From: Pseudomonas oryzihabitans
Lineage (GTDB): Bacteria; Pseudomonadota; Gammaproteobacteria; Pseudomonadales; Pseudomonadaceae
Length of the DNA stretch: 64,000 nt
Assembly: GCF_024652905.1 (NCBI RefSeq)
Contig: NZ_CP102428.1
Span: 3,050,501-3,114,500 of the forward strand
Direction: 5' to 3'
Shown here: in pieces, positions 15,371 to 46,097 of the stretch
Layout of the letters: every line of letters starts with the position of its first letter
How positions within the stretch are numbered: position 1 is the first letter of the stretch
Translations under genes and position numbers: made by a program
The notes under the pieces: generated by a model
Seen by the model: the letters and a program-made list of their open reading frames with translations, nothing else
The model's database searches: none
What the model was told of the DNA's origin: nothing

Positions 15371-15512
15371 AGAGCTTGTTCAGCGTCTGCTGCGCGTCGG
15401 CCAAGCGGCGTTAGAAATGCCTTCGGAATGCTCATTTACCACTCGTAAACTCCGCTTCCTCAGGCATTTCCGCCTTGTTTGGCTCTAGCTCGCGAGACGT
15501 TGAACAGGCTCT
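15371..15512. repeat. Dispersed intergenic hairpin element, copy A
   Basis: This 142-bp copy lies between priA and argS, 12 bp after the priA stop. Its 18-bp ends are inverted repeats (16 of 18 match). The core, read on the minus strand, is GAGGAAGCGGAGTTTAC, five variable bases, then GTAAATGAGCATTCC (15461-15425). The core is enclosed by GAAATGCCT/AGGCATTTC and further out by GCCAA/TTGGC, so the whole unit can fold into one long interrupted hairpin. Four other copies occur in this window. Confidence 0.9.
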
Positions 15513-15597
15513 TACCATTGGCAAGGCCGGGCTCGCCACGGATAATGCCGGGTTTTCATCGCAGTGCGCGCCCGGCGCACGCCGAAGGCCAATGACC

Positions 15598-17355
15598 ATG
15601 AAAGACAGCATCCGCCAGCTCATCCAGCACGCCCTCGACCGCCTGATCGCCGACGGCACCCTGCCGGCCGACGTGGCGCCGGCCATCCAGGTCGAGAACA
15701 CCAAGGACAAGAGCCACGGCGACTTCGCCAGCAACGTCGCCCTGCTGCTGGCCAAGCCGGCCCGCGCCAAGCCCCGTGACCTGGCCGAGAAGCTGCTGGC
15801 CGCCCTGCCCGCCGATCCGGCGGTGAGCAAGGTGGAGATCGCCGGCCCCGGCTTTCTCAACTTCTTCCAAAATCACGCGCAACTGGCCGCGCGGCTGGAT
15901 GCGGCCTTCGCCGATCCGCAACTGGGCGTGCCCACGCACGACCCACGCCAGCGCGTGGTGGTGGACCTCTCCTCGCCGAACCTGGCCAAGGAGATGCACG
16001 TCGGCCACCTGAGATCCACCATCATCGGCGACGCCGTGGCGCGGGTGCTGGAATTCCTCGGCGACGAGGTGATCCGCCAGAACCACGTCGGCGACTGGGG
16101 TACCCAGTTCGGCATGCTGCTGGCCTACATGGAAGAACAGCCCCAGGCCGCCGAAGGCGAGCTGGCCGACCTGGAGGTCTTCTACCGCGCGGCCAAGGGC
16201 CGCTTCGACGCCTCGCCGGAGTTCGCCGCGCGGGCCCGCGAGCTGGTAGTGGCGCTGCAGGCGGGCGATGCCCACTGCCTGCGCCTCTGGGAGCGCTTCA
16301 ACGCCGTCTCCCTGTCCCACTGCCAGGAGGTCTATGACCGCCTCAACGTCAAGCTGACCCCAGCTGACGTCAAGGGCGAGAGCGCCTACAACGACGACCT
16401 GGCCCAGGTGGTCGCCGATCTGGAGGCCGCCGGACTGCTAACCGAAAGCGACGGCGCCCGTTGCGTCTTCCTCGACGAATTCAAGAACGCCGAGGGCAAT
16501 CCGCTGCCGGTGATCGTACAGAAGGCCGGCGGTGGCTATCTCTATTCCACCACCGACCTGGCCGCCATGCGCTATCGCAGCCGCCAGCTGCAGGCCGATC
16601 GCGCGCTCTACTTCGTCGACCAGCGCCAGGCCCTGCACTTCCAGATGGCCTTCGAGGTCGCGCGCCGCGCCGGCTTCGTCGATCCGGCCATGCAACTCGA
16701 ACACATGGGCTTCGGCACCATGAACGGCGCCGATGGCCGCCCCTTCAAGACCCGTGATGGCGGCACCGTCAAGCTGGTCGACCTGCTCGACGAAGCCGAA
16801 GAGCGTGCCTACCAACTGGTCAAGGAGCGCAATGCCGGACGCGCCGAGCGTGGCGAGACACCCTTCAGCGAAGACGAACTGCGCCACATCGGCCGCGTGG
16901 TGGGTATCGCCTCGGTCAAGTACGCCGACCTGTCCAAGCACCGCACCAGCGACTACAGCTTCAACTTCGAGCAGATGCTCAGCTTCGAGGGCAACACCGC
17001 GCCCTACCTGCTGTACGCCTACACCCGGGTCGCCAGCGTGCTGCGCAAGGCCGGGCAGAGCGAGCCCACCGGCCGCATCCGCCTGGACGCCCCGCAGGAG
17101 CAGGACCTGGGCGGCCGCCTGGCGCAATTCGGCGAGATCCTCGCCAGCGTCGCCGACAAGGGCACCCCGCACCTGCTGTGCAGCTACCTCTATGACCTGG
17201 CCGGGCTGTTCTCCAGCTTCTACGAGAACTGCCCGATCCTGACCGCCGAGGACCCCGAATTGCGCCAGAGCCGCCTGCGGCTGGCCGCGCTCACCGGACG
17301 CACCCTCAAGCAGGGCCTGGAACTGCTCGGTCTGCATACCCTGGAACGCATGTAA
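15598..17355 (+). CDS. argS: Arginyl-tRNA synthetase
   Basis: This is a class Ia synthetase that charges tRNA-Arg. The 585-residue protein has the N-terminal Add-1 domain (FLNFFQNH), the HIGH-type signature [12 protein letters not shown], and a C-terminal DALR anticodon-binding domain ([15 protein letters not shown] onward). A second ATG six bases upstream (15592) has better spacing to AAGG, but [13 protein letters not shown] from 15598 matches the family. In-frame sequence further upstream overlaps repeat element A and is not part of the protein. The SPOR gene follows 18 bp later. Confidence 0.95.
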
Positions 17356-17373
17356 GAGACGGATCACCGCCTG

Positions 17374-18105
17374 ATGGCCAAGAAAGCCCCACCCAAGCGC
17401 GGCGCCAGTCGCAACACCTCGGCTCCCAAGAAACAGCCCCTGCCCGGCTGGGTCTGGCTCGCGTCGGGTCTGGCCATCGGCGCCTTCGTCGTATTCCTGA
17501 TGAAGCTCGAACCGGGTAACAAGTCGGTGCAGCGCGCCAAGCCGGAGGAAGGTCGCCCGGCCGCCACGGCGGGCAATGGCAAGTCGACCGCTGCCGGCAA
17601 GACCGAAGGCACGCCGCCTACGCCGATCAAGCCCAAGTACGATTTCTATACCCTGCTACCCGAATCCGAGGTGATCGTGCCGCCGGACGCCGTGCCACGC
17701 ACGCCGGCCGCCAAGCCGACCACCCCGGCCAAGCCGGATGCCGCGGCGACGCCGGCGCAGCCCGGCCAGCCGACCACCGCGACCCCGACCACGCCAGGTA
17801 CCGCTCCGGGCCAGCCCGCTGCGACGCCACCCAAGGAAGCGACCACCAAGGCCCAGCCGCCAGTGACCCTGTTCTTCCTCCAGGCCGGTTCCTTCCGCAC
17901 CCAGGCCGATGCCGACCGCGTCCGCGCCCAGATCATCATGCTCGGCCAGGACGTGCGCGTGGAATCGGGCAAGGTCAAGGACGACACCTGGTATCGGGTG
18001 CTGGTCGGTCCCTATAGCGATCGTGACCAACTGACCCAGGCACAGAAGCAGCTCGCCGGCAGCGGCTTCAAGAATCTGTTGCTGCAGCAACGCCGCGGTC
18101 ACTAG
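17374..18105 (+). CDS. SPOR-domain cell-division protein (FtsN-like)
   Basis: The 243-residue protein has the layout of FtsN: a basic cytoplasmic N-terminus (AKKAPPKRGASRN), one transmembrane helix near residues 26-45 (WVWLASGLAIGAFVVFLM), a long Pro/Thr/Ala-rich periplasmic linker, and a C-terminal SPOR domain from about residue 165 (FFLQAGSFRTQADADRVRAQ) that would bind denuded septal glycan. It lies between argS and hslVU, the position of PA5052 in P. aeruginosa. FtsN identity is likely but was not tested by search. Repeat element B starts at its stop codon. Confidence 0.88.
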   Translation: MAKKAPPKRGASRNTSAPKKQPLPGWVWLASGLAIGAFVVFLMKLEPGNKSVQRAKPEEGRPAATAGNGKSTAAGKTEGTPPTPIKPKYDFYTLLPESEVIVPPDAVPRTPAAKPTTPAKPDAAATPAQPGQPTTATPTTPGTAPGQPAATPPKEATTKAQPPVTLFFLQAGSFRTQADADRVRAQIIMLGQDVRVESGKVKDDTWYRVLVGPYSDRDQLTQAQKQLAGSGFKNLLLQQRRGH

Positions 18106-18277
18106 GAGTCTGCCCACGGCGTGCTGCGTGCCGGCCAAACGGCGTTGAAAACCCTCTGGATCGCCAGCCCCACCTAGGCGGTCCAGCCGGAATGCTCATT
18201 TACCACGCGCAAACTGCGCTTCCTCGAGCGTTTTCGCCTTGTTTGGTTCTAGCTCGCGAGGCCGTGAACAGACGCTC
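18106..18277. repeat. Dispersed intergenic hairpin element, copy B (with internal hairpin insertion)
   Basis: This 172-bp copy begins at the base after the SPOR gene stop. The core (minus orientation) is at 18225-18189, with G replacing A in TTTGC opposite GTAAA, a G-U-compatible change. The proximal arms are GAAAAC/GTTTTC. It differs from the other copies by an extra segment of about 30 bp that is itself an inverted repeat (CTGGATCGCC/GGCGGTCCAG, 18156-18186). The terminal arms are CTG.CCACGGC against GCCGTGAACAG. Confidence 0.87.
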
Positions 18278-18303
18278 ACCTGCCGAATCCCCTCGCCGTG
18301 ATG

Positions 18304-18332
18304 CTTGAAGGGCGCCGCGGCCATCCCCATAT
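18304..18332 (+). promoter_or_regulatory. Heat-shock (sigma-32 type) promoter of hslVU
   Basis: CTTGAA (18304-18309), a 15-bp spacer, then CCCCATAT (18325-18332) match the sigma-32 consensus for both elements and spacing. It lies 47 bp upstream of the hslV start, as expected for this heat-shock operon. Confidence 0.85.
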
Positions 18333-18334
18333 CT

Positions 18335-18369
18335 CCGCGTAACCGGGGCCGATGCCCCAAGCAACGCGG
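18335..18369 (+). promoter_or_regulatory. 5'-leader stem-loop of hslVU mRNA
   Basis: CCGCGT (18335-18340) pairs perfectly with ACGCGG (18364-18369), enclosing GGGGC-CGAT-GCCCC (18345-18358). The structure starts at about the predicted transcription start. Its 3' arm shares two bases with the hslV Shine-Dalgarno sequence GGAGAG (18368-18373). It could stabilise the mRNA or tune initiation with temperature; this is inference from pairing only. Confidence 0.5.
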
Positions 18370-18379
18370 AGAGATTCCC

Positions 18380-18913
18380 TTGACCACCATCGTTTCTGTA
18401 CGCCGCAACGGCAAGGTCGTGATCGGCGGCGACGGCCAGGTTTCCCTGGGCAACACCGTCATGAAAGGCAATGCCAAGAAAGTCCGGCGGCTGTACCGGG
18501 GCGAGGTGCTGGCCGGTTTCGCTGGCGGTACCGCCGACGCCTTTACCCTCTTCGAGCGCTTCGAGGCGCAACTCGAAAAGCACCAGGGTCATCTGGTCCG
18601 CGCCGCCGTCGAGCTGGCCAAGGACTGGCGCACCGACCGTGCCCTGCGCCGCCTGGAAGCCATGCTGGCAGTCGCCAACAAGGACGCCTCCCTGATCATC
18701 ACCGGCAACGGCGACGTGGTGGAACCCGAAGAAGGCCTGATCGCCATGGGCTCCGGTGGCGCCTATGCCCAGGCCGCCGCCCGCGCCCTGCTCATGCATA
18801 CCGACCTCAGTGCCCGCGAGATCGCCGAGACCTCCCTGAATATCGCCGGTGACATCTGCGTGTTCACCAACCGCAACCTGACCATCGAGGAGCTGGACGC
18901 GCCCCAGGCGTGA
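18380..18913 (+). CDS. hslV: ATP-dependent protease peptidase subunit HslV
   Basis: HslV is the proteasome-like peptidase that forms a double hexamer capped by HslU. The 177-residue protein is read from TTG 18380, preceded by GGAGAG. After removal of the initiator Met the sequence begins [19 protein letters not shown], placing the catalytic N-terminal threonine correctly. The conserved [10 protein letters not shown] and [14 protein letters not shown] segments are present. Frames extending further upstream run into the promoter and leader. hslU starts 19 bp downstream. Confidence 0.96.
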
Positions 18914-18932
18914 TCCGGTTTAGAGACTGCCC

Positions 18933-20282
18933 ATGTCCATGACCCCCCGCGAGATCGTCCACGAACTCAACCGCCACATCATCGGCCAGGACGACGCCAA
19001 GCGCGCCGTGGCCATCGCCCTGCGCAACCGCTGGCGGCGCATGCAGCTGCCCGTCGAGCTGCGCCCCGAGGTCACGCCCAAGAACATCCTGATGATAGGC
19101 CCCACGGGTGTGGGCAAGACCGAGATCGCCCGGCGTCTGGCCAAGCTGGCCAACGCCCCCTTCCTCAAGGTGGAAGCCACCAAGTTCACCGAGGTCGGCT
19201 ATGTCGGCCGCGACGTCGAGTCCATCATCCGTGACCTGGCCGATGCCGCGGTGAAGATGCTGCGTGAACAGGAAATGGTGCGTAACCGCCATCGCGCCGA
19301 AGATGCCGCCGAAGAGCGCATCCTCGATGCCCTGCTGCCGCCGGCGCGGCCTTCGGTGGGCTTCAGCAACGAACCCCAGCCGACCGCCACCGATAGCAAC
19401 ACCCGCCAGCTGTTCCGCAAGCGCCTGCGCGAAGGCCAGCTGGACGACAAGGAAATCGACATCGAGGTGGCCGACACCCCGGCCGGCGTCGAGATCATGA
19501 CCCCGCCCGGCATGGAGGAGATGACCAGCCAGCTGCAGAATCTCTTCGCCGGCATGCACAAGGGCAAGACCAAGCAGCGCAAGCTCAAGGTCAAGGAAGC
19601 GCTCAAGCTGGTGCGCGATGAAGAAGCCGCGCGCCTGGTCAACGAGGAAGAACTCAAGGGCCGCGCCCTGGAAGCCGTCGAGCAGCACGGCATCGTCTTC
19701 ATCGACGAGATCGACAAGGTCGCCAAGCGCGGCAACACCAGCGGTGCCGATGTCTCCCGCGAGGGCGTGCAGCGCGACCTGCTGCCGCTGATCGAAGGCT
19801 GCACCGTCAACACCAAGCTGGGCATGGTCAAGACCGACCACATCCTGTTCATCGCCTCGGGTGCCTTCCACCTGTCCAAGCCCAGCGATCTGGTACCGGA
19901 GCTGCAGGGTCGTCTGCCGATTCGCGTCGAACTCAAGGCGCTGACCCCGCAGGACTTCGAGCGCATCCTCACCGAGCCCCATGCCTCCCTCACCGAGCAG
20001 TATCGCGAACTGCTCAAGACCGAGGGACTGCTCGTGGAATTCGCCGCCGACGGCATCACCCGCATCGCCGAGATCGCCTGGCAGGTCAACGAGAAGACCG
20101 AGAACATCGGGGCCCGCCGCCTGCACACCCTGCTGGAGCGCCTGCTGGAAGAGGTGTCCTTCAGCGCCGCCGACCTCGCCGGTCAGCAGAATGGCGAGCC
20201 CATCGTCATCGACGCGGCCTATGTGAACGGCCATCTGGGTGAACTGGCCCAGGACGAAGACCTGTCGCGCTATATACTATGA
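18933..20282 (+). CDS. hslU: ATP-dependent protease ATPase subunit HslU
   Basis: HslU is the AAA+ unfoldase that feeds substrates to HslV. The 449-residue protein has Walker A GPTGVGKT (56-63), the GYVGRDVES pore loop, the variable I-domain (about residues 110-240) rich in charged residues, Walker [10 protein letters not shown] and the sensor-2 region [10 protein letters not shown]. The C-terminal LSRYIL tail is the conserved peptide that inserts into HslV. It forms an operon with hslV. Confidence 0.97.
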
Positions 20283-20329
20283 CGGCAAGCCTGATGCCTG
20301 GTTGATCGCGGCCATGGCTGCAACAGACC

Positions 20330-20421
20330 GTAGGTTGGGTTGAGACAGCTCTATCGTCGAAGCCCAACGTTGCCTGCGCCCTGAACCCATGGTGGGCTTC
20401 GCTGCGCTCAACCCAACCTAC
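20330..20421. repeat. REP-like inverted-repeat element (GTAGGTTGGGTTGAG type)
   Basis: The 15-bp ends GTAGGTTGGGTTGAG and CTCAACCCAACCTAC are perfect inverted repeats. Inner segments CGAAGCCCAAC and GTGGGCTTCG also pair. This type of dispersed element is common in gammaproteobacterial intergenic regions. It lies 48 bp after hslU. Only one copy is present in this window. Confidence 0.7.
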
Positions 20422-20428
20422 AGCGGTT

Positions 20429-20470
20429 GGTAGGAGCGGCCACATCGGCGGACTGTCATGGCCGCGCTGG
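20429..20470. repeat. Possible Pseudomonas REP half-element
   Basis: GGTAGGAGCGGCCA followed by TGGCCGC forms a 7-bp inverted repeat (20436-20442 with 20459-20465). The left arm resembles the GTAGGAGCGGC head of Pseudomonas REP sequences. The loop is longer than usual, so this may be a degraded copy. Confidence 0.4.
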
Positions 20471-20510
20471 CCTCAAGCAAAGACTGAATCGCCGCCCAGA
20501 GAACCTCAGC

Positions 20511-20882
20511 ATGCGTACCCCTACCGCCATCCAGCTCCACAAGGCCTCCAAGACCCTCAGCGTCAGCTATGGCGCGGAAACCTTCGAGCTGCCCGCCGAA
20601 TTCCTGCGGGTACATTCGCCCTCGGCCGAGGTCCAGGGACACGGCAACCCGGTATTGCAGTGGGGCAAGCAGCAGGTCGGCATCAGCGCCGTCGAACCAG
20701 CGGGGCGCTACGCCATCAAGCTGACCTTCGATGACGGCCACGACAGTGGTCTGTTCAGCTGGGACTATCTTTATGAACTGGGCAGTCGCCGCGACCAGCT
20801 CTGGGCCGACTACCTGGAACAGCTGGCCCGCGCCGGCAAGACGCGGGATCCGCACGTCAGCGCGGTCAAGCTGATACTCTAG
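20511..20882 (+). CDS. DUF971 family protein (gamma-butyrobetaine hydroxylase N-terminal-like)
   Basis: The 123-residue protein is a stand-alone DUF971 domain, the fold found at the N-terminus of gamma-butyrobetaine hydroxylases. Visible conserved parts are LSVSYGAETFELPAEFLRVHSPSAEV and AIKLTFDDGHDSGLFSWDYLY. Its function is not established. In P. aeruginosa the equivalent (PA5055) lies between hslU and the pha cluster; here the pha cluster is missing and the next gene is convergent, 7 bp away. ATG 20511 is used because the DUF971 similarity begins there and upstream sequence belongs to the repeats. Confidence 0.85.
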   Translation: MRTPTAIQLHKASKTLSVSYGAETFELPAEFLRVHSPSAEVQGHGNPVLQWGKQQVGISAVEPAGRYAIKLTFDDGHDSGLFSWDYLYELGSRRDQLWADYLEQLARAGKTRDPHVSAVKLIL

Positions 20883-20889
20883 CGCTGGC

Positions 20890-21168
20890 TCAGGCCGCCA
20901 GGGCCTTGTCCAGCTTGCGCTCGATTTCCTTTTCGATCTGGCCACTGAGCATCGAGAACATCATGCCCAGGGTCGCCAGTACCCGCACCCGGTCTTCACC
21001 GACCTCGATCCGCCCGTCTACGCCGCTGCGCGTGAATGTCAGGGTATCGCCTTCCCAGGCGCAGGCCACCCCATAGTCGCGCGTGAGTTTTTCCGCCAGC
21101 TGGTCGGCTTTCTGGCGAGCGCCTTCCAGGCCGAGCGAATGGCTGCGTTCGATGGTGATCTGGGACAT
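20890..21168 (-). CDS. Polyhydroxyalkanoic acid system family protein (PHA_gran_rgn)
   Basis: The 92-residue protein matches the small family annotated as a polyhydroxyalkanoic acid system protein: ITIERSHSLGLEGARQKADQLAEKL, then a CAWEGDTLTFTRSGVDGRIEV core and an amphipathic C-terminus (GQIEKEIERKLDKALAA). It is cytoplasmic with no catalytic motif. No PHA synthase, depolymerase or phasin gene is nearby, unlike in pha-containing Pseudomonas, so any PHA role here is doubtful. It is convergent with the DUF971 gene and divergent from ubiE. Confidence 0.8.
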   Translation of the reverse strand: MSQITIERSHSLGLEGARQKADQLAEKLTRDYGVACAWEGDTLTFTRSGVDGRIEVGEDRVRVLATLGMMFSMLSGQIEKEIERKLDKALAA

Positions 21169-21319
21169 CGGGGAACTCCGGATAAGGGGCCCTGACTATA
21201 GCGAGGGCCCGCCACGTCGCCAATCGCGAGAACCGAGCGGTCAGCCCCCGTTTTAGCCGGACATCCCGGGCGATCGGCCTGCTAGAATGCCCTCTTGTCC
21301 CTGTCCCAGGTGTAGCCCC

Positions 21320-22090
21320 ATGAGCGATCCGCGCAAAGGCCCCGAGGCCGAATCCCAGACCCACTTCGGCTACCAGAGCGTCCCGGAGAGCCAGAAGGCT
21401 TACAAGGTCGCGGAGGTCTTCCATTCGGTGGCGGCCAAGTACGATGTGATGAACGACCTGATGTCGGCGGGCATCCACCGGCTGTGGAAGAGATTCACCA
21501 TCGAACTGTCCGGCGTGCGCCGCGGCAACCGCGTACTGGACATCGCCGGCGGCACCGGCGACCTGACCAAGCAGTTCGCCCGTCTGGTCGGCCCCACCGG
21601 CGAGGTGGTCCTGGCCGACATCAATGACTCCATGCTACGGGTCGGCCGCGATCGCCTGCTCGACGAAGGCGTCGCCAGCAATGTGCGCTTCGTCCAGGCG
21701 GATGCCGAGAAGCTACCCTTCCCCGACAACCATTTCGACTGCATCACCATCGCCTTCGGCCTGCGCAACGTCACCCACAAGGACCAGGCCCTGGCCTCAA
21801 TGCTGCGCGTGCTCAAGCCGGGTGGCCGGCTGCTGGTGCTGGAATTCTCCAAGCCCACCAACCCGCTGGTGTCCAAGGCCTATGACGCCTACTCCTTCGG
21901 CTTCCTGCCGCTGATGGGCAAACTGGTGGCCGGTGACGCCGAAAGCTATCGCTACCTGGCGGAATCGATCCGCATGCACCCCGATCAGCAGACCCTCAAG
22001 GCCATGATGGAAGAGACCGGCTTCGCCCGGGTCACCTTCCACAACATGACCGGCGGCGTGGTCGCCCTGCATCGCGGCATCAAGCCCTGA
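21320..22090 (+). CDS. ubiE: Ubiquinone/menaquinone biosynthesis C-methyltransferase UbiE
   Basis: UbiE is a SAM-dependent methyltransferase for the C-methylation step of ubiquinone synthesis. The 256-residue protein has the UbiE signature [17 protein letters not shown], the SAM-binding motif [11 protein letters not shown] and [16 protein letters not shown] 21320 gives the standard 256-residue form. Its stop overlaps the ubiJ start (TGATGG), so ubiE-ubiJ-ubiB is a coupled operon. Confidence 0.96.
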
Positions 22091-22725
22091 TGGCCCTCGT
22101 CACCCAGGCGTTGCTGGCCGCACTGGAGCGTGGCCTGAATCCGCTGCTGGCGCTCGACCCGGTGGCCTTGCCGCGCCTGGCCGGCCTGACCGGACGGGTG
22201 ATCGCGGTCCAGCCCCGGCAACCGGCGCTGCGCCTGTACATCCTGCCCGCGGGTGACGGCCTGCACTTCGCCGCCCATCACGAGGGCGACATCGACTGCA
22301 CCCTCAGCGCCCCGGCGACGCGCCTCGCTGAACTGGCTCTGGCCCGCGACAAGCAGCGCGTGCTGCACCAGCCGGACGTGCGCCTGGAGGGCGACAGCGC
22401 CCTGCTGATCGAACTGTCCGACATCCTGCAGAAGCTGGAGCTGGACTGGCAGCACGAAGTCAGTCGCTGGCTCGGCCCGCTGCCAGCCGCACTCCTGGGT
22501 GATCTGGCCCGACGCAGCCAGGCACTCGGCGAACAGACGCGTGACAGTCTGCAGCTGACGCTGTCCAACTGGCTGAACGAGGAGAGTCGTCAGCTGGTCG
22601 GCCGCCTGGAAGGCGAGGCCCGCTTCGCCGAGATCGATGCCCTGCGCCTGGACGTGGATCGTCTCGACGCTCGCCTCGCCCGCCTGGGCACCGCCCGCAA
22701 CGCCAGGGATAACCCCGACGAATGA
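22090..22725 (+). CDS. ubiJ: Ubiquinone biosynthesis accessory factor UbiJ (SCP2 domain)
   Basis: The 211-residue protein has an N-terminal SCP2 lipid-binding domain ([27 protein letters not shown]) and a C-terminal coiled-coil helix ([19 protein letters not shown]). UbiJ is an assembly factor of the cytoplasmic Ubi complex that presents hydrophobic intermediates. It lies between ubiE and ubiB and overlaps both by a few bases. Confidence 0.92.
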
Positions 22726-24320: not shown

Positions 24321-24425
24321 ACTCCTTAAGCTGTAACCGTCCTGTCATTTTTATCGGGCGAAATACACGCCCTCAGCCACTGGTGCCCTGCCGCTGTATT
24401 CGAGTTGCGTCTTATGCGAGGCTAG

Positions 24426-24565
24426 GGCCTGTTTGAAAAGTCGCCGAGCGAAGGTCAGGCAAGGCAAAAATCCGTGAGGAAGCGGAGTTTACGAACGGTA
24501 AATGAGCATTCCGAACGGATTTTTAACGCCGCATGACCGAGCGCAAGCATTTTTCGGACAGAGCC
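24426..24565. repeat. Dispersed intergenic hairpin element, copy C
   Basis: This 140-bp copy lies between ubiB and hisI in plus orientation, with the core at 24476-24512. It is the most diverged copy in its arms: the proximal stem is AAAAATCCGT/ACGGATTTTT, a perfect 10 bp of different sequence from copy A, and the middle stem is GGTCA/TGACC where copy A has GCCAA/TTGGC. The core GAGGAAGCGGAGTTTAC...GTAAATGAGCATTCC is unchanged. The outer ends are an imperfect inverted repeat (GGCCTGTTTGAAAA with TTTTCGGACAGAGCC). Confidence 0.88.
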
Positions 24566-24597
24566 AAGTACCCTAATTCGTAGTATTGAACAGACTC

Positions 24598-25324: not shown

Positions 25325-25351
25325 CCCCAAGCTTCGCAACGAGGAAAGACC

Positions 25352-35623: not shown

Positions 35624-35763
35624 GAAGCCGTTCACGATCTCGCGAGCTAGAGCCAAGCAAGACGACAATGCCTGAGAAAGCGGAATTTACAGATAGTAAA
35701 TGAGCATTTCGAAGGCATTTTCAACGCCGCTTGGCCGACGCGCAGCAGATCGTGAGCGGCTTC
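35624..35763. repeat. Dispersed intergenic hairpin element, copy D
   Basis: This 140-bp copy in plus orientation ends at the base before the speA stop codon (read on the minus strand it starts directly after speA). The ends GAAGCCGTTCACGATCT and AGATCGTGAGCGGCTTC pair at 16 of 17 positions. The core (35674-35710) carries three changes (GAGAAAGCGGAATTTAC and GTAAATGAGCATTTC). The proximal stem is AATGCCT/AGGCATT. Confidence 0.9.
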
Positions 35764-37677
35764 TTAGCCGGCGAGGTAGGAGGAACGGGTCAGGCCCAGG
35801 CGCATGGCGTCGAGGAACTGGGTGCGCTCGCGCGCGGTGAGACGGGCGCTGGCGACCTTGTCGCGGTAGTAGGTCATCAGCTCCTCGGGCGAGAGGTGCA
35901 CGTACCTGAGCATGTCCTCGATGGTGTCGTGGGTCTCGATGCCGCCATGGCGCACGCTGCCGTCGGCGTCTTGGTAGACGTTCACCGAATCGGTGTCGCC
36001 GAACAGGTTGTGCATGTCGCCAAGGATCTCCTGGTAGGCGCCCACCAGGAACACCGCCAGCAGATAGTCCTCGCCCTCGCGCACCTCGTGCACCGGCAGG
36101 CTGGTCTCGATGCTCTGCTCGTCGACGTACTGCTTGATCTTGCCATCGGAATCACAGGTCAGGTCCTGCAGCACGGCGCGACGCACCGGCTCCTCGTCCA
36201 GGCGGGTCAGGGGCACGATCGGCAGGATCTGGTCGATGGCCCAGGTATCGGGCAGGCTCTGGAACACCGAGAAGTTGCAGATGTACTTGTCGGCCAGCTT
36301 GTCGTTGAGCTCGTCGAGCACCTGGCGGTGGGAGCGCTGGCGCGCCTTGAGCTGGTTGTACAGGCGGCGGCAGATGGCGAAGTAGCACTGCTCGGCCAGG
36401 GCCTTGTCGCTCAGGCTCAGGGTGCCGGCGGCATACTGGGCGGCGGCCTCGCTGACGTACTGGGTGGCGCGCCAATAGGTCTCGGTGACCATCTCCGGAT
36501 CGGTGTCGCCGAGCAGCTCGGCCAGCCACTGCACCACCTCGGCCTTGCCTTCGAAGCGCTCGCTGGCCGGCACGCTGTCGTTGTGGCGCTCGACGTCGGT
36601 GACCTGCATCACCAGCATGGCGTGGTGGGCAGTCATGGCACGGCCGCTTTCCGAGAAGATGTTGGGATGCGGCAATTCCTGCTGGTCGCAGAACTCCTTG
36701 AGCATGCCGACCACGGTACCGGCGTAGTCGTCCATGTCGTAGTTGATCGAGCTGGCGTTGCGCGAGTGGGTACCGTCGTAGTCCACGCCCAGGCCGCCGC
36801 CCACGTCGATGTGATCCAGCGGCAGGCCCAGGGCGCGCAACTCGGCGTAGTAGCGGATGGCTTCGCGGAAACCCTGGCGATAGTCGGCCAGGTTGGCGAT
36901 CTGCGAGCCCATGTGGAAGTGCAGCAGGCGCACGCCCTGCTCCAGGCCGGCGGCGCGGAAGCGTTCGATCACCGACAACAGCTGGGCGGCGGAGAGGCCG
37001 AACTTGGACTTCTCGCCACCGGTATCGGCCCATTTGCTCGACGCCAGGGACGACAGCCGCACCCGCAGGCCGACCTGGGGCGTGACCTTGAGCTCGGCCG
37101 CCTCCTCGATCACCAGCGGGACCTCGGATTCCTTCTCGATGACGATGAAGACGCTGTGACCGAGCTTCTGGCCCATCAGCGCCAGACGGATGAATTCGCG
37201 ATCCTTGTAGCCATTGCAGACGATGGTACCGCCCTTGGGCGCCAGCGCCAGCACCGCCATCAGCTCCGGCTTGGAGCCGGCCTCCAGGCCGATGGAGACG
37301 TCGCGGGTGGCGATGATGTTTTCCACCACCGCTTCCTGCTGGTTGACCTTGATCGGATAGAGGGCGGTGTAGCGGCCCTGGTAGTCGAGGCGTTCGATGT
37401 TGCGATCGAAAGCGCCGGTCAGGTGCCGCACCTGGCCCTGGAGAATGTCGGGGAAACGGACTAGCAGCGGCAGCGACAGCCCCGCTTCGCGCAGCTGGCC
37501 GACCAGCACATGGAGGTCGATCGGCTGGCCGTCCGGGCCGTGGGGGCGGACTTCGACGTTGCCGGCATCGCTGATGGCGAAGTAGCCGGCACCCCAGTGG
37601 CGAATACCATAGACGCTGCGGCTGTCCGCCACGGTCCACTGGCTGCCGTCATCTTTGCGCGTGCGTCGTGGGGACAT
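35764..37677 (-). CDS. speA: Biosynthetic arginine decarboxylase
   Basis: This PLP enzyme converts arginine to agmatine for putrescine synthesis. The 637-residue protein has the PLP-lysine segment ALYPIKVNQ (Lys110), the HFHMGSQI motif, the glycine-rich [13 protein letters not shown] and the C-terminal active-site cysteine region [15 protein letters not shown] lies upstream of the ATG. It follows the SUI1-type gene in the same direction with an 86-bp gap, and repeat D abuts its stop. Confidence 0.96.
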
Positions 37678-37763
37678 TCGCGGGAATCTCCTGTAGGGAA
37701 TCTTGCTTTGGATGGACCGCCGCCAGGGGCGGTAAGTTGTACGCGGGGGCTGGAAGGCCTGGC

Positions 37764-38108: not shown

Positions 38109-38251
38109 GGGACGGTTCTCCCAGTTCGATTCAGACGCCGGGCGCCTGGAGGAAACCTTGGATGCAGCGCCGGCCGGCACGGGCCGCGCTAGTCCGGGGC
38201 CGCGCAATGTAGCAGCATCGCCCGCGGATGCTAAGGCGCGAATGCGAGAAA

Positions 38252-39825: not shown

Positions 39826-40072
39826 TTCCTTGCAATGATTTCAAAGGTGTCGGCGCTTGGACCCCTGCCCGCGGCGCCGGTTGCGCAGCCCTCGCAGGCC
39901 GCTCGGGCGCAATGCACCTGGGCAGCCGCCTCCGAGCCTAGGGTAACAGGCGACAAACGCTACTCCAGAAGCGACCGACAGTGTCCATGCGAGCGGCATC
40001 GCCGCCGCTAACCAGGGTACCGCCTCTCCCCTGCCAGCCAGCAATTGGTAGCATAGGGCCACCACCTCAAGA

Positions 40073-41707
40073 ATGACGGAACAATTCGTGAGCGAACCAG
40101 ATGATCCGAGCCGGGACCGCCTCAAGCTGCACTTCGCGCAACGGGTCATCCACCAGTCGCGCCAGGTGCTGGAGATCTGGCAGCGGCTGCAACGAGACGA
40201 ATGGACGGCCGGCAGCCTGGCCGAACTGACCGACGCCAATGCGCGCCTGCTGCAATACGCGAAGCGCTTCGAGCAGCAGGGCCATGCCGAGCTCGCCGAG
40301 ACCATCGGCGCTTCCCTGGCCCAGGTCGCCGCCAATCGCGGCCGCCTCAACAGCCAGGCCATCACCGAACTTAGCCAGGCCATGCAGAGCCTGTCGCGCA
40401 CCGGGCTGCGCCAGGGCGACCAGCTGGAAACCACCAGCCTGCCGCCGCTGCGCAAGCCGATCTACATCGCCCTGCTCGACAGCGAGCGCGCCGAGCGCCT
40501 GGCGCAGCAGATGGAGTACTTCGGCGTCACCATCCAGATCGTCCACCATGCCGACGACTTCCGCGCGATGATGGACAGTCGCCATCCGGCGGTCATCGTC
40601 ATGGACGTGGACTTCGGCGGCGCAGGCGCTGGCATCCAGCTGGCGCTGGAGGCCCAGACCGGTCTCGAACGTAAGTTGCCGGTGCTGTTCTACAGCCACC
40701 AGGAGGCCGATACGCCCTTTCGCCTGGCGGCGGTGCGCGCCGGTGGCCAGGAGTTCTATACCGGCACCCTGGATTCGGCGCGGCTGCTGGAAAAGATCGA
40801 GACCCTCACCCGCACCGTCTACTACGATCCAATCCGCGCCCTGGTGGTGGACGATTCCCGCGCCCAGGCCATGGCCACGGAAATGGCGCTCAACAGCGCC
40901 GGCATCGTCACCCGCACCCTGATGCAACCCGGGGCGGTGATGGCGCACCTGGCGGAATTCGCCCCCGATCTGATCATCCTCGACATGTACATGCCCGAGT
41001 GCATTGGCACCGAGCTGGCCAAGGTCATCCGCCAGCACGAGCGCTATGTCAGCGTGCCCATCATCTATCTGTCGGCCGAGGACGATCTCGACAAGCAGCT
41101 GGATGCCATGAGCGAAGGCGGTGACGACTTCCTCACCAAGCCGATCAAGCCGCGCCACCTGATCGCCACGGTGCGCACCCGCGCCGCCCGGGCGCGCAGC
41201 CTGCAGGCACGCATCGTCCAGGACAGCCTCACCGGGCTGTACAACCACACCCATACCCTGCAATTGCTGGAAGACGCCTGCTTCCGCGCGCGGCGCAGCC
41301 AGCGACCGATCACCTTCGCCATGCTGGACATCGACCATTTCAAACAGGTCAACGACCACTACGGCCACCCCATGGGCGATCGGGTGATCAAGAGCCTGGC
41401 GCTGTTTCTCAAGCAGCGCCTGCGCAAGTCCGACCATATCGGCCGTTATGGCGGCGAGGAATTCGCCGTCGTACTGCCCGACACCGACCTGGCCACCGCC
41501 ACCCGCCTGATCGACGAGATCCGCCAGCGCTTCGCCGAGATCCACTATCCGGCACCGCCCAAGGAACTCAGCTGCACCTTCAGCGCCGGCGTGGCGCAGC
41601 TGCAGCCCGGCCAGGAGATGCCCGCGCTGGCCAAGCAGGCGGACGAAGCCCTCTATGCCGCCAAGCATGCGGGACGCAATTGCGTGCGTCAGTACGGCCA
41701 GGACTGA
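40073..41707 (+). CDS. gcbA: Tandem-receiver diguanylate cyclase (GcbA type)
   Basis: The 544-residue protein has an N-terminal helical region (to about residue 125), two receiver domains and a GGDEF domain. REC1 (about 128-250) is degenerate: the acidic pocket is reduced and the conserved Lys region reads EFYTG. REC2 (about 256-375) is canonical, with VVDDSR, LDMYMPE and FLTKPI. The cyclase has GGEEF at 460-464 and an I-site RKSD upstream, so it should make c-di-GMP with product inhibition. Its domain order and genome position match GcbA (PA4843), which acts in attachment and dispersal. Confidence 0.85.
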   Translation: MTEQFVSEPDDPSRDRLKLHFAQRVIHQSRQVLEIWQRLQRDEWTAGSLAELTDANARLLQYAKRFEQQGHAELAETIGASLAQVAANRGRLNSQAITELSQAMQSLSRTGLRQGDQLETTSLPPLRKPIYIALLDSERAERLAQQMEYFGVTIQIVHHADDFRAMMDSRHPAVIVMDVDFGGAGAGIQLALEAQTGLERKLPVLFYSHQEADTPFRLAAVRAGGQEFYTGTLDSARLLEKIETLTRTVYYDPIRALVVDDSRAQAMATEMALNSAGIVTRTLMQPGAVMAHLAEFAPDLIILDMYMPECIGTELAKVIRQHERYVSVPIIYLSAEDDLDKQLDAMSEGGDDFLTKPIKPRHLIATVRTRAARARSLQARIVQDSLTGLYNHTHTLQLLEDACFRARRSQRPITFAMLDIDHFKQVNDHYGHPMGDRVIKSLALFLKQRLRKSDHIGRYGGEEFAVVLPDTDLATATRLIDEIRQRFAEIHYPAPPKELSCTFSAGVAQLQPGQEMPALAKQADEALYAAKHAGRNCVRQYGQD

Positions 41708-41763
41708 TCTGGCGAGCCGGGTGCCTCTGCTATGATCGGCCGCTGCCGATCATCGAGAAGCCC

Positions 41764-43527
41764 ATGCGTGTCCTGCTGTTCCTGCTCACCCTGCTGCTGA
41801 CCCTGCCCGCCGCCGCCGGCCTGTTCGATGCACCGCGCCCGACCGCCACGCTGGGCCTGGACGGTCAGCGCGGGGGCCAGCAATTCCTGCCGGTGGATCA
41901 GGCCTTTCGCCTGGAGCAGCGCCGTGATGCCGAGGGCCGCCCCCTGGTGCGCTTCACCATCGCCGAGGGCTACTACCTCTATCGGCAGCGCTTCGCCTTC
42001 GACGCCGATCCCGGCCTGCTGAGCGCACCGGTGGTCCTGCCGCCCGGCGAGCCCAAGCACGATGAATGGTTCGGCGATGTCCAGGTCTATCACGCCGGCG
42101 TCGACATCCCCCTGCCCCTCGCGCCCGGCCGCGGCGGTCGGATCACGGTCACCTACCAGGGTTGCGCCGACCGAGGTCTCTGCTATCCACCGGAAACCCG
42201 CATCCTGGATATCGCCAGCTCCGCGGCCTTGCCCACGGCGAGCCCGGCGACCAGCGCCCCTGCCCCCGATCAGGTCGGCTGGAACAGACTCCTGCTGGCC
42301 TTCCTCGCGGGGCTGGGACTGACCTTCACCCCCTGCGTCCTGCCGATGCTGCCCATCGTCTCGGCGGTGGTGCTGGCCGGCAAGGCGCGTCCGGGCCGTG
42401 GCCTGCTGCTGGCGCTGGCCTACGTGGTACCCATGGCCCTGAGCTTCGCGGCCCTGGGCGCGCTCATGGGCGTCTTTGGCGCCAGTCTCAATCTGCAGGC
42501 GCAACTGCAGTCGGCCTGGGTGCTGATTCCCTTCGCCGCGCTGTTCCTGCTGTTCGCCCTGGCCATGTTCGGCCTTTTCGAACTGCGCCTGCCGGCGGCC
42601 CTGCGCGAGCGCCTGGAACAGCTGGCCAGTGGCACCCGCGGCGGCTCCCTCGGCGGCGCGGCCACCCTGGGCGTGCTCTCCAGCCTGATCGTCTCGCCCT
42701 GCGTCTCGGCGCCCCTGGCGGGCCTGCTGCTCTACATCAGCAGCACCGCCGACTGGCTTGGCGGCGGACTCGCCCTGTTCGCCCTGGGCCTGGGCATGGG
42801 TACCCCGCTGGTCCTCATCGCCGCCGGTGGCGGCGCCCTGCTGCCACGCAGCGGCGCCTGGCTGGTGGGCATGCGCAACGCCTTTGGCGTGCTGCTGCTG
42901 GCGGTGGCCCTGTGGCTGCTCGAACGGCTGTTGCCGGGACCACTGGCCTTGGCCGCCTGGGGCCTGCTGGCGGCCGGCGTCGGGTTGTTTCTAGGGGCCC
43001 TGGAATTGGTGCCCAAGCCGCCCCGTCAGCGCCTGCTGCAACTCGCCGGGCTGGCCCTGGTGGTCTATGGCGTGGCGGCGGGTATCGGTGCCCTGCACGG
43101 CGCCAGCGATCCGCTGCGGCCCCTGGGTGACTCGACGGCGCCTGGAGTGGCTGCGCACCCCGACGGCATGCGCAGCCTCAGCGATCCGGCTGCTTTAACC
43201 AGCAGTCTCGGCGGCGGTCGACCGGTGCTGGTGGACGTCTACGCCGACTGGTGCATCAGCTGCAAGATCATCGAGCGCGAGGTATTCGGCAACCCCGAAG
43301 TCCAGGCACAACTCAGGGACTTCGAGCTGATCCGCTTCGATATGACGCAAAGCACCCGGGAGCAGCGGCAGTGGCTGCAGCAGCACGGCCTGTTCGGCCC
43401 GCCGGCGATCCTGTTCTATGCGGCCAACGGCCAGGAACAGGCAAAGGGACGCATCGTCGGCGAAATCGACGCCGCGGGCTTTCTCGCCCGACTGGACGAA
43501 GCAAAAAGGCTTATCGCCAGCGATTAA
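41764..43527 (+). CDS. dsbD: Thiol:disulfide interchange protein DsbD
   Basis: DsbD moves electrons from cytoplasmic thioredoxin to periplasmic proteins. The 587-residue protein has a signal peptide ([16 protein letters not shown]) and an N-terminal DsbD-alpha domain with the cysteine pair in [12 protein letters not shown]. The eight-helix membrane domain has its cysteines in TPCVLPMLP and [10 protein letters not shown], and the C-terminal thioredoxin domain has Cys497 and Cys500 in DWCISCK. ATG 41764 gives the signal peptide; upstream in-frame sequence overlaps the cyclase gene. Confidence 0.95.
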
Positions 43528-43574
43528 AAGAATTTCGCCCAACGTGCGGCTATTTCCGGCAAACGTCTAGCGAC

Positions 43575-43603
43575 TGGACAGTCACCTCTGGTTGCGGCAT
43601 AGT
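43575..43603 (+). promoter_or_regulatory. Candidate sigma-70 promoter for aroQ-accB-accC
   Basis: TGGACA (43575-43580), a 17-bp spacer and CATAGT (43598-43603) lie 40 bp upstream of aroQ, after the dsbD stop. The match is 5 of 6 and 4 of 6. Confidence 0.38.
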
Positions 43604-43643
43604 CCGCGGCCAATCTGGTTGCGAAATCGCGAGGCAAGTGGCT

Positions 43644-44090
43644 ATGGCGCATCTGCTGGTACTGCACGGGCCCAACCTGAATCTGCTGGGTACCCGCGAG
43701 CCGGGCGTCTACGGTGCCACCACCCTGGCCCAGATCAATGCCGATCTCGAAGCCCGCGCCACCGCGGCGGGGCATCGCCTGCAGTCTCTGCAAAGCAACG
43801 CCGAGCACCTGCTGATCGAACGCATCCACGCCGCGCGCGACGAAGGAGTGGATTTCATCCTGATCAATCCGGCCGCCTTCACCCATACCAGCGTCGCGCT
43901 ACGTGACGCCTTGCTCGCGGTGAGCATCCCATTCATCGAAGTGCACCTGTCGAACGTGCACAAGCGCGAAGCCTTCCGCCACCACTCCTATTTTTCCGAC
44001 GTGGCGGTCGGTGTCATCTGCGGGCTCGGTGCCAGTGGCTATCGCCTGGCCCTGGAAGCCGCCTGCGAACAGCTCGCCGCCCGCGGCTGA
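43644..44090 (+). CDS. aroQ: 3-dehydroquinate dehydratase, type II
   Basis: This enzyme dehydrates 3-dehydroquinate to 3-dehydroshikimate. The 148-residue type II protein has [17 protein letters not shown], the Tyr of GVYG, the [16 protein letters not shown] motif, and [21 protein letters not shown] 43644 is used, with GAGG nine bases upstream; a GTG two codons earlier is possible. It precedes accBC, a conserved gammaproteobacterial order. Confidence 0.95.
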
Positions 44091-44143
44091 GCGCGACTCA
44101 ATATCCAGAACATCACCTGAACCCGAGGGGAGAGCCAACGCCA

Positions 44144-44605
44144 ATGGACATCCGTAAAGTCAAGAAACTGATCGAGTTGCTGGAAGAGTCCGGTATCGAC
44201 GAGCTGGAAATCCGCGAAGGCGAAGAGTCCGTCCGCATCAGCCGCAACACCGGCCGCAACCAAGGCATGCAGACCGTCTACGCCGCTGCTCCCGCGCCGG
44301 TCGCCGCTCCGGCTCCGGCCGCTGCGCCGGCCGCCGCCGCTCCTGCCGAAGCCGCCGCTCCGCAACTGACCGGTAACGTGGCTCGCTCGCCCATGGTCGG
44401 CACCTTCTACCGCGCGTCCTCGCCCACCACCCCGGCCTTCGTCGAAGTCGGCCAGCAGGTGAAGAAAGGCGACATCCTGTGCATCGTCGAAGCCATGAAG
44501 ATGATGAACCACATCGAAGCCGAAGCCAGCGGTACCATCGGCCAGGTGCTGGTCGAGAACGGTCAGCCCGTCGAATTCGACCAGCCGCTGTTCACCATTG
44601 TCTAA
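44144..44605 (+). CDS. accB: Biotin carboxyl carrier protein of acetyl-CoA carboxylase
   Basis: The 153-residue protein has an N-terminal dimerisation segment ([23 protein letters not shown]), an Ala/Pro-rich swinging linker, and a biotinyl domain with EAMKMM. Lys119 is the biotin attachment site, and the thumb sequence [11 protein letters not shown] is present. GAGGGGAGAG lies upstream. accC follows after 16 bp; together they form the biotin carboxylase part of fatty-acid synthesis. Confidence 0.97.
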
Positions 44606-44621
44606 GCCCGTGGAGCCCACG

Positions 44622-45968
44622 ATGCTGGAAAAAGTCCTGATCGCCAACCGTGGGGAAATCGCCCTGCGCGTGGTGCGTGCCTGCAAGGAGCTGGGCATCA
44701 AGACGGTGGCGGTTCATTCCACCGCCGACCGCGAACTGATGCATCTGTCCCTCGCCGACGAATCGGTGTGCATCGGCCCGGCCCCCTCGCCCCTGTCCTA
44801 CCTGAACATCCCGGCCATCATCAGCGCCGCGGAAGTCACCGGTGCCACCGCCATCCATCCCGGCTACGGCTTTCTCGCCGAGAACGCCGACTTCGCCGAG
44901 CAGGTGGAGCAGTCCGGTTTCGCCTTCGTCGGCCCCACCGCCAGCGTGATTCGCCTGATGGGCGACAAGGTCTCCGCCAAGAACGCCATGAAGCAGGCCG
45001 GCGTACCCACCGTACCGGGCTCCGATGGCGCCCTGCCGGATGACGAGGCCGAGTGCCTGCGCATCGGCCGCGAAGTCGGCTATCCGGTGATCATCAAGGC
45101 CGCCGGTGGCGGTGGTGGTCGTGGCATGCGCGTGGTGGAGGACGAGGCCGAGCTGATCAAATCGATCAAGCTGACCCAGACCGAAGCCGGCGCCGCCTTT
45201 GGCAACTCCATGGTCTACATGGAGAAGTTCCTCGGCAATCCGCGTCACGTGGAAGTCCAGGTGCTCTCCGATGGCCAGGGCAATGCCGTGCACCTCTACG
45301 ATCGCGACTGCTCGCTGCAGCGCCGCCATCAGAAGGTCATCGAAGAGGCGCCTGCGCCCCAGATCGACGAAAAGGCCCGTGAAGAAGTCCTGGCGCGCTG
45401 CGTCAAGGCCTGCATCGACATCGGCTACCGGGGCGCCGGCACCTTCGAATTCCTCTACGAAGACGGCCGCTTCTACTTCATCGAGATGAATACCCGCGTG
45501 CAGGTGGAGCATCCGGTGACCGAGATGATCACTGGTGTCGACATCGTCAAGGAGATGCTCAGCATCGCCGCTGGCAACAAACTGTCGATCAAGCAGGAAG
45601 ACATCAAGATCACTGGTCACGCCATCGAGTGCCGGATCAACGCCGAAGACCCCAAGACCTTCATGCCCTCCCCGGGCCTGGTCAAGCATTTCCATGCCCC
45701 GGGCGGCAACGGCGTGCGGGTCGATTCGCACCTGTACAGCGGCTACAAGGTTCCGCCGAACTACGATTCGCTGATCGCCAAGCTGATCACCTGGGGCAAG
45801 ACCCGCGACGAGGCCATGGCCCGGATGCGCAACGCCCTGGACGAGCTGATCGTCGACGGCATCAAGACCAACGCCGATCTGCACCGGATGCTGACCCGCG
45901 ACCAGGCCTTCGGCCAGGGCGCGGTGAACATCCACTATCTGGAGAAGAAGCTCGGCATGCGCCACTAA
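44622..45968 (+). CDS. accC: Biotin carboxylase subunit of acetyl-CoA carboxylase
   Basis: This ATP-grasp enzyme carboxylates biotin on AccB. The 448-residue protein has [15 protein letters not shown], the glycine-rich ATP loop [15 protein letters not shown], the [19 protein letters not shown] catalytic strand and [14 protein letters not shown] with the catalytic Arg. ATG 44622 gives the standard start [11 protein letters not shown] and follows GTGGAG. Repeat element E begins 2 bp after the stop. Confidence 0.97.
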
Positions 45969-45970
45969 CT

Positions 45971-46097
45971 AGCGTGACGGCTGCGCGTCGGCCAGGCTGC
46001 GTTGGAAACCGCCTCGGAATGCTCATTTACTCTATGTAAACTGCGCTTCCTCAGCGATTTCCGCCTTGCCTGACCTAGCTCGCTCGCCCCGTCGGCT
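45971..46097. repeat. Dispersed intergenic hairpin element, copy E
   Basis: This copy of about 127 bp in minus orientation follows accC almost directly. The core is 46052-46016, with C for G in GCGCAGTTTAC. The proximal arms GGAAATCGCT/GGCGGTTTCC pair over 10 bp including two G-U pairs, and the middle arms GGTCAGG/CCTGGCC also pair with one G-U. The outermost inverted repeat is short and weak compared with copies A and D, so its ends are approximate. Confidence 0.82.

What the first reader, a model, noticed from the sequence alone, without database searches (positions are those of the whole stretch)
15371..46097. Five-copy intergenic element (A-E) with an invariant core and co-varying paired arms
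Copies are at 15371-15512, 18106-18277, 24426-24565, 35624-35763 and 45971-46097, in both orientations. All share GAGGAAGCGGAGTTTAC-N5-GTAAATGAGCATTCC with few changes, yet the arms around it differ and still pair. The proximal stem is GAAATGCCT/AGGCATTTC in A, GAAAAC/GTTTTC in B, AAAAATCCGT/ACGGATTTTT in C, AATGCCT/AGGCATT in D and GGAAATCGCT/GGCGGTTTCC in E. The middle stem is GCCAA/TTGGC in A and GGTCA/TGACC in C, and the terminal repeats covary too (A, B, D). Conserved core with compensatory arm changes is what a selected structure gives: either a structured RNA near gene 3' ends, or a small mobile hairpin whose core a transposase in trans recognises. I do not recognise a named family.
Basis: partly seen in the sequence, partly recalled or inferred. 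Interest (0 to 1): 0.72.

Follow-up and report, generated by a model that had tools for sequence, protein, structure and literature searches.

The report
Mobile DNA hairpin with constant core
The five repeats belong to a family of about 140-base hairpin-shaped jumping DNAs that carry no gene, bear the ends of several different insertion sequences, and keep one nearly unchanging folded centre in many groups of Proteobacteria; why that centre is kept is unknown.

Summary
Observation confirmed. The five copies are among 72 core matches in this chromosome (Pseudomonas oryzihabitans group). Covariation is very strong: 36 of 55 pairs change on both sides in 90 plain copies, 490 two-sided cells against 148 in shuffles.

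They are mobile. Copies A and D are cleanly absent from seven fetched relatives each; A is flanked by a 3-bp target duplication, TTA. The ends of 50 of 69 copies fall into three classes, each also the ends of IS5-family insertion sequences in sister genomes. They are best read as MITEs moved in trans by IS5-type transposases, although this genome has no match to two IS5-type models.

An ordinary MITE does not explain the interior. A 70-base interior model matches 106 of 274 gammaproteobacterial genomes, inside differing terminal repeats. The core stem covaries too, and mismatches favour one strand.

I read this as a single-strand-folding core that has survived changes of transposase. Its function (ssDNA or RNA) is unproven. 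45 of 69 copies sit against a stop codon.

The parts
15372..15511 (-). Copy A, 140 bp, end class T1 (GAGCY..RGCTC)
   Evidence: empty in 7 of 7 relatives fetched for this site; present in G006
15369..15371 (.). Target duplication TTA, left of A
   Evidence: empty site GGCTTACC
15512..15514 (.). Target duplication TTA, right of A
15425..15461 (-). Core of A
18106..18277 (-). Copy B, 172 bp, with a nested 30-bp insert; begins directly after the stop codon of ORF 17374-18105
   Evidence: G003 orthologue lacks the insert; arms differ on both sides
18189..18225 (-). Core of B
   Evidence: 2 mismatches
24426..24565 (+). Copy C, 140 bp; ends (GGCCTGTTTGAAAAG) look T3-like by eye
   Evidence: shared site in G003, where the left half carries a longer nested module
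24476..24512 (+). Core of C
   Evidence: 0 mismatches
35624..35763 (+). Copy D, 140 bp, end class T1; abuts the stop codon of minus-strand ORF 35764-37677
   Evidence: empty site TCA in 7 of 7 relatives fetched for this site; filled TCA..TTA; present in G003
35674..35710 (+). Core of D
   Evidence: 3 mismatches
45971..46097 (-).
   Evidence: decayed in G003 and G006, absent in the 4 other relatives fetched
46016..46052 (-). Core of E
   Evidence: 1 mismatch

Best explanation
[quoted passage not shown] Shown: it inserts cleanly, duplicates a 3-bp TNA target in its commonest end class, and carries terminal repeats found on IS5-family insertion sequences in sister genomes. Inferred: those IS5-family transposases, acting in trans on the terminal repeats, move it. 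Stop codons TAA and TGA are themselves TNA sites and the duplication leaves them intact, so insertion there is harmless and such copies persist. Shown: interior stems covary while internal-loop motifs stay nearly fixed, across many Pseudomonadota and across different terminal repeats. Inferred: one strand folds into a hairpin with a fixed internal loop (GCGSAG opposite TGAGCA) that does something useful to the element (not necessarily to the host), and it has been kept while the ends changed from one transposase to another. Copying one arm from the other by template switching would explain how both ends and both sides of each stem change together.
For: Empty sites and TTA duplication. 3-bp duplications, all TNA, at 40 of the 77 T1 copies whose ends could be anchored (of 209 copies), shuffled mean 14.0, maximum 24 in 2000. 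The same ends on IS5-family elements: T1 in L253 (833 bp) and, as a close variant, L260 (846 bp); T2 in L244, L248 and L254 (905-910 bp); T3 in L261 (908 bp). NF033580 (IS5 family): two pieces of L254 score 125 and 173 bits, over the cut-off of 110; two pieces of L260 score 83 and 43, below it; the G001:C39 element of L253 reaches 146 bits with its neighbours in frame. In this genome both ends are T1 in 32 copies, T2 in 10, T3 in 8, of 69. G006 has the most copies of 13 genus members (209) and the most NF033580 matches (46); all 7 loci fetched there carry a T2 end. Covariation. Distribution with differing ends. Core stem covaries. G.U over A.C 142:63 outside the core. Both sides of a stem changed at one orthologous site, copy B in G000 against G003.
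Against: This genome has no match to PF01609 or NF033580 at E<=0.001, nor do G002, G003, G008, G009 and G011, yet these have 38-75 copies. G005, G001 and G012 have 29, 15 and 7 NF033580 matches but 11, 3 and 1 copies. So copy number does not simply follow resident IS5. In 12 distant genomes, 30 PF01609 loci (the part of the matches that was fetched) held no match, up to 3 mismatches, to the ends of that genome's one sampled element. The end match is only about 17 bp. With copy A as query the element is nearly absent from plasmids (1 of 72,556 records) and phages (0 of 50,697), unusual for a transposon. T2 duplications (TA) are not distinguishable from end conservation (18 of 22 against 17.3 shuffled). 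Strand asymmetry counts related sequences and is weak in the middle helix (31:24).
Confidence: 0.7

Rival explanations
1. A structured RNA at gene 3' ends: the transcribed hairpin stabilises or ends mRNAs, and copies are kept because hosts benefit.
For: 45 of 69 copies abut a stop codon, while 34 of 214 non-coding TNA sites in the window are stops; only 3 of 69 lie between divergent genes; left core 2 changes in 162 bases against 422 in 7492 in flanks at 18 shared sites, p=0.009.
Against: The abutting gene more often reads the strand opposite to the folding one (35 right against 15 left, p=0.007). Arms evolve at the flank rate, 6.5% and 5.3% against 5.6%. Copies decay: E in G003 and G006, B in G006 and L070 against L132. 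Presence is patchy among close relatives. The core pattern was required to find both partners, which inflates its conservation.
Confidence: 0.15
2. Covariation without selection on structure: replication template switching keeps copying one arm of the quasi-palindrome to the other, and the core is conserved only because copies are young.
For: Arms change at the flank rate yet keep pairing; changes on both sides of a stem at an orthologous site; internal modules differ at 11 of 18 shared sites by script, 12 if L010 with its 16-base gap is added. The mechanism is published for RNA hairpins (PMC8794818, abstract and start of the introduction seen).
Against: It should erase the internal-loop mismatches too, but AAGCGSAG/TGAGCATT and CAAGGC/AACGC stay largely unpaired and conserved in distant genomes. 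It predicts no strand asymmetry, yet G.U exceeds A.C 142:63. It may be how the arms change, not why the core stays.
Confidence: 0.2
3. A REP/REPIN-like element moved by a single-strand (HUH, Y1) transposase that recognises the hairpin.
For: Conserved hairpin with fixed mismatches, chromosomal restriction and intergenic placement resemble REPs; 9 of 13 genus genomes have a Y1 match.
Against: This genome with 72 matches has no Y1 match at E<=0.001, nor do G001, G008 and G010 (G008 and G010 have 73 and 89 copies). Insertions duplicate 3 bp and carry IS5-type ends. No bias between replication strands (19+/17- and 18+/15-, taking the contig start as origin).
Confidence: 0.05

Closest known systems
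MITEAba12 and other IS-derived bacterial MITEs (PMC6382973, passages seen; review PMC10969869, passages seen)
   Same: Gene-free, about 110-140 bp, terminal repeats and target duplications matching an insertion sequence (ISAba12 there), inferred movement in trans.
   Different: MITEAba12 is reported with weak predicted structures and 9-bp duplications; here three end classes in one genome share a strongly covarying, conserved interior. That ISAba12 is itself of the IS5 family is recalled, not from the passages.
P. fluorescens intergenic repeat families R0-R200 (PMC2718517, passages and section 9 seen)
   Same: Intergenic, some with inverted-repeat ends, tail-to-tail gene bias, proposed MITEs.
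   Different: Consensus sequences are in supplements not held, so identity with R178 or others could not be tested. No cross-phylum core or change of ends is described in the passages seen.
REP/REPIN with RAYT (PMC3116915 and PMC8266576, search listing with abstract starts only)
   Same: High copy, hairpin, thought to be mobile in trans.
   Different: 3-bp duplications and IS5 ends here; no Y1 match in this genome.
Stem-loop families Pae-1, Ppu-9 and others (PMC2267715, passages seen)
   Same: Structured repeats in Pseudomonas, some of similar size (Ppu-9: 124 bp).
   Different: Sequences not held; membership untested.
Coxiella QMITE1/QMITE2 (PMC5896051, passages seen)
   Same: Gammaproteobacterial MITEs, QMITE2 mainly in 3' untranslated and intergenic regions.
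   Different: Larger (300-400 and 150-190 bp), other direct repeats; QMITE1 reported without orthologues in other genomes.

Membership tests
MITE | Short, no gene of its own | tested here: met
   127-172 bp in the window; among proteins of 188 loci no recurrent transposase was seen, judged by eye from the clusters
MITE | Terminal inverted repeats | tested here: met
   175 of 209 copies score 10 or more for a terminal repeat (no shuffled control); both ends in one class in 50 of 69
MITE | Target-site duplication shown by an empty site | tested here: met
   Copy A TTA; D is TCA in the empty site and TCA..TTA filled, so one copy has changed; 40 of 77 anchored T1 copies
MITE of IS5-family elements | Ends shared with a known IS family | tested here: met
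   T1, T2 and T3 ends in sister genomes; NF033580. Distant genomes: 0 of 30 loci
MITE of IS5-family elements | Interior is a deletion remnant of the IS | tested here: not met
   The 160 bases printed at each end of 8 elements diverge from the repeat just inside the ends, by eye; core pattern absent at up to 4 mismatches in 41 loci, 11 hits at 5 mismatches against a shuffled mean of 5.7, range 1-14
MITE of IS5-family elements | Transposase present in the same genome | tested here: not met
   0 matches to PF01609 and NF033580 in G000; present in sister genomes
MITE of IS5-family elements | Actual transposition by that transposase | not testable with these tools
   Needs a bench assay
REP/REPIN (RAYT system) | Resident Y1 (TnpA-REP) gene | tested here: not met
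   PF01797: none in G000; 9 of 13 genus genomes positive
REP/REPIN (RAYT system) | GTAG foot and REP consensus | not tested
   Feature recalled and partly in the listing; not searched for
Rfam families | Match to a curated model | tested here: not met
   No gathering hit over the copies; no E<=5 hit over the element in 5 loci
P. fluorescens R families; Ppu/Pae stem-loop families | Sequence consensus | not testable with these tools

The most novel reading that the evidence does not exclude
A transposase-independent parasitic hairpin: a single-strand structural core, conserved across Pseudomonadota, that persists by repeatedly swapping both terminal repeats at once for those of whatever DDE transposon is active in its host. 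Its palindromic shape makes the double swap possible, because one arm can be rewritten from the other. The core itself would supply a general function (for example a folded ssDNA or RNA bound by a widespread host factor) that helps any such element to spread or be tolerated.
Probability: 0.35. Interest if true: 0.85.

Novelty: new variant of a known kind. Interest (0 to 1): 0.62.

Why it matters
MITEs are usually seen as dead-end deletions of one insertion sequence. A family whose interior outlives its transposases would be a different way for selfish DNA to persist. It would also give a clean system to ask whether compensatory change in hairpins comes from selection or from template switching, since many orthologous and paralogous copies evolve side by side. 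In practice, covariation alone, often taken as proof of functional RNA, could mislead annotators here.

Tried and rejected
Y1/RAYT mobiliser: rejected as the common mobiliser, since G000, G001, G008 and G010 lack a Y1 match and three of these four have 69-89 copies. Replication-strand preference: none seen (contig start assumed to be the origin). A gene travelling next to the element: an all-against-all comparison of proteins of 188 loci gave clusters that look like ordinary chromosomal genes by eye. Plasmid or phage spread: with copy A as query, one plasmid record of 72,556 and no phage record of 50,697; 7 IMG/VR contigs hold an exact core pattern, not examined further. Known RNA: Rfam negative. 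Matching distant ends to local PF01609 elements: 0 of 30 loci in 12 genomes (16 genomes were searched, 12 had matches and only 30 loci were fetched); a first version of that test was flooded by too short a query and is not used. In G158, pattern hits to the element's ends led to a nested pile of small elements, not to an autonomous IS. A looser core pattern (up to 5 mismatches) pulled in chance sites (L072:1026 and its partners), so its pair counts are not used. The same loose pattern hits 8 of 41 transposase loci, one inside the L253 element; this is within shuffled range and vanishes at 4 mismatches.

Rows dropped: for covariation 90 of 259 distinct core-bearing stretches were used, those of plain T1 form and fixed length, so copies with inserts and other end classes are not in that count. 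The covariance model used 30 of 151 plain interiors, chosen to differ (of the 31 chosen, L295 was left out). In one search only copies with anchored ends (77 and 22 of 209) were counted. The 28 copies called distant are those of 37 loci (L341-L377) with a core score of 24 or more; several are Pseudomonadaceae. Gene calls come from my own codon-score script, not a standard gene finder. The module patterns partly match one another, so single module names there are not reliable, only presence against absence.

Full report
WHAT IS THERE. The chromosome holds 72 core matches at up to 3 mismatches and none to the reversed control; all 72 listed are on the 4.88-Mb contig and none on the other two. 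Of 37 genomes searched (this one and 36 relatives), 27 have at least one match at up to 2 mismatches, from 1 to 209 per genome. Sixty-nine copies were read out with their surroundings.

STRUCTURE. The element is one long hairpin: terminal repeat, a middle stem, a proximal stem, and a tip with a 5-base loop. Ninety plain copies of the commonest class align over 142 columns. Of 55 pairs, 36 have changes on both sides; 490 cells carry such changes, against a shuffled mean of 148; 94.3% of cells pair, against 35-41% when partners are slid by 1-3 columns. Of the 15 strongest mutual-information pairs, 12 are predicted pairs. Related copies inflate such counts; the sliding control keeps relatedness, but the structure was taken from the consensus of these copies, which favours it.

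IT MOVES. At copy A, seven relatives have GGCTTACC where this genome has GGCTTA-element-TTACC, a clean 3-bp duplication. At copy D, seven relatives have a TCA that is the stop codon of the gene on the right; the filled site has TCA on one side and TTA on the other. The fetched relatives were chosen because the alignment broke there: A is present in G006, and D is present in G003 and continuous in G011. Across 77 class-T1 copies with anchored ends, 40 have identical 3-mers on both sides, all TNA, against a shuffled mean of 14 and a maximum of 24 in 2000.

WHO MOVES IT. Searching the genus for DDE_Tnp_1 (PF01609) found, in sister genomes, insertion sequences with the same ends: GAGCCTGTTCACGATCT in an 833-bp element flanked by TGA and a close variant in an 846-bp element flanked by TTA; TAGGYTCTGTACGAAAART in 905-910-bp elements; TAGGGTTTGTCTGAAAAGT in a 908-bp element. 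Pieces of L254 match NCBIfam NF033580, IS5 family transposase, over its cut-off; pieces of L260 match below it; the L253 element scores 146 bits with its neighbours in frame. In this genome both ends are T1 in 32 copies, T2 in 10 and T3 in 8, of 69; the other 19 were one-sided, unclear or without a class. The 160 bases printed at each end of eight ISs do not continue into the repeat's interior (by eye). The core pattern is absent at up to 4 mismatches from 41 transposase loci; 11 hits at 5 mismatches, one inside the L253 element, lie within the shuffled range of 1-14. So the repeat is not a simple deletion remnant of these ISs.

RESULTS AGAINST THAT READING. This genome has no PF01609 or NF033580 match, and neither do G002, G003, G008, G009 and G011, which have 38 to 75 copies. 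G005, G001 and G012 have 29, 15 and 7 NF033580 matches but only 11, 3 and 1 copies. G006 has the most of both, 46 and 209, and all seven of its loci fetched carry a T2 end. In 12 distant genomes none of 30 PF01609 loci had the ends of the one sampled local element. So movement by IS5 in trans is a strong inference for Pseudomonas, not yet for the rest.

THE CORE OUTLIVES ITS ENDS. A covariance model of the 70-base interior matches 106 of 274 gammaproteobacterial genomes drawn across the class, this one included (91 of 222 genera; E<=0.001), and 64 of 299 drawn across the phylum (27 of 154 genera; E<=0.0001) (calibration is short, so E-values are rough, and the weakest matches may include chance). 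In 38 loci read out, most keep the motifs CAAGGC-AAAA, AAGCGSAG, TGAGCATT and TTTT-AACGC, while the outer inverted repeats fall into many types: some recur in several families (for example CAGGCTGTTGAAA and close variants), others were seen in one or two genomes, and a few loci show no clear outer repeat (by eye). In 28 of these copies the core stem itself varies with pairing kept: TA to GC at one pair in 4 copies, CG to GC or TA at another in 4. Nearly fixed loop, changing stems is the mark of a folded strand. G.U pairs exceed A.C mismatches 142 to 63 outside the core in the strand that carries AAGCGSAG (88:26 in the terminal repeat, 31:24 in the middle, 23:13 in the proximal stem), and 43 to 24 in the proximal stem of 151 copies. 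This points to that strand, as ssDNA or RNA. The counts are not corrected for relatedness, and in the terminal repeat differences between left and right transposon ends could add to them.

WHERE IT SITS. With my own gene calls, only 3 of 69 copies lie between divergent genes. In 45 of 69 a stop codon lies against an end of the element; among non-coding TNA sites of the window 34 of 214 are stop codons. The comparison is imperfect: of the 50 abutting ends 31 are TAA or TGA, which are TNA sites, and 19 are TAG, which fits the CTAG-type sites of the other end classes. A duplication of TNA keeps the stop. The abutting gene is on the right in 35 copies and on the left in 15 (p=0.007), which is unexplained.

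EVOLUTION AT ONE SITE. Eighteen sites are shared by G000 (70 copies) and G003 (63 fetched of 75). The left 9 core bases, not used in the search, differ at 2 of 162 positions against 422 of 7492 in the flanks (p=0.009), while arms differ at about the flank rate. Because both partners had to carry the core pattern, this overstates conservation; E in G003 and G006 and B in G006 have decayed cores. Short modules of about 14-16, 30 or 57 bases inside the element are present in one genome and absent in the other at 11 of 18 sites by script, 12 if L010 is added from its alignment. At copy B the proximal stem differs on both sides between G000 and G003. Template switching is a published route for such double changes (PMC8794818; abstract and start of the introduction seen).

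HOW IT MOST LIKELY WORKS. Shown: clean insertion, 3-bp duplication, IS5-type ends, covariation, widely conserved interior. Inferred: IS5-family transposases act on the ends; insertions into stop codons are tolerated; arm-to-arm copying lets both ends change together; the core gives the element an advantage as a folded strand. The last step is the weakest, and its molecule is unknown.

WHAT IS KNOWN. MITEs inferred to be moved in trans by an IS with matching ends are known (MITEAba12 and ISAba12, PMC6382973, passages seen). Structured Pseudomonas repeats with a tail-to-tail bias are known (PMC2718517; stem-loop families in PMC2267715), but their sequences are not held here, so this family may already be listed under another name. 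Searches for core letters found no paper, with 11-12-base pieces, listed 8 papers whose titles are unrelated (listing only). Topic searches listed no paper that I could recognise as describing a core shared across end classes. Most subscription papers and ISfinder were not searched.

Noticed in passing
window 8065-8359 (-): Rfam asponA (anti-ponA RNA), 141.6 bits.
   Followed up: no
window 56490-56631 (+): SAH riboswitch aptamer, 46.1 bits.
   Followed up: no
22 of 70 G000 copies and 28 of 63 G003 copies: Short hairpin-like modules sit at fixed junctions inside the element and differ between orthologous sites at 11 of 18 (12 by eye), much faster than base substitution. Their origin is unexplained.
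   Followed up: partly
L419 (G158), about 1500-2200: A nested pile: a related element whose loop region is interrupted by further palindromic elements with other terminal repeats (by eye).
   Followed up: no
69 copies in G000: The abutting stop codon is on the right of the core strand in 35 copies and on the left in 15; no explanation for this orientation bias.
   Followed up: partly
G000 contigs C2 and C3: No copy on the two smaller contigs (about 0.34 Mb together) although about 5 would be expected from the density on C1.
   Followed up: no
Sites A and D across the ten close genus members (G000, G002-G004, G006-G011): Presence is patchy and does not follow overall identity (A in G000 and G006; D in G000, G003 and G011), suggesting recombination, precise loss or repeated insertion.
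   Followed up: partly
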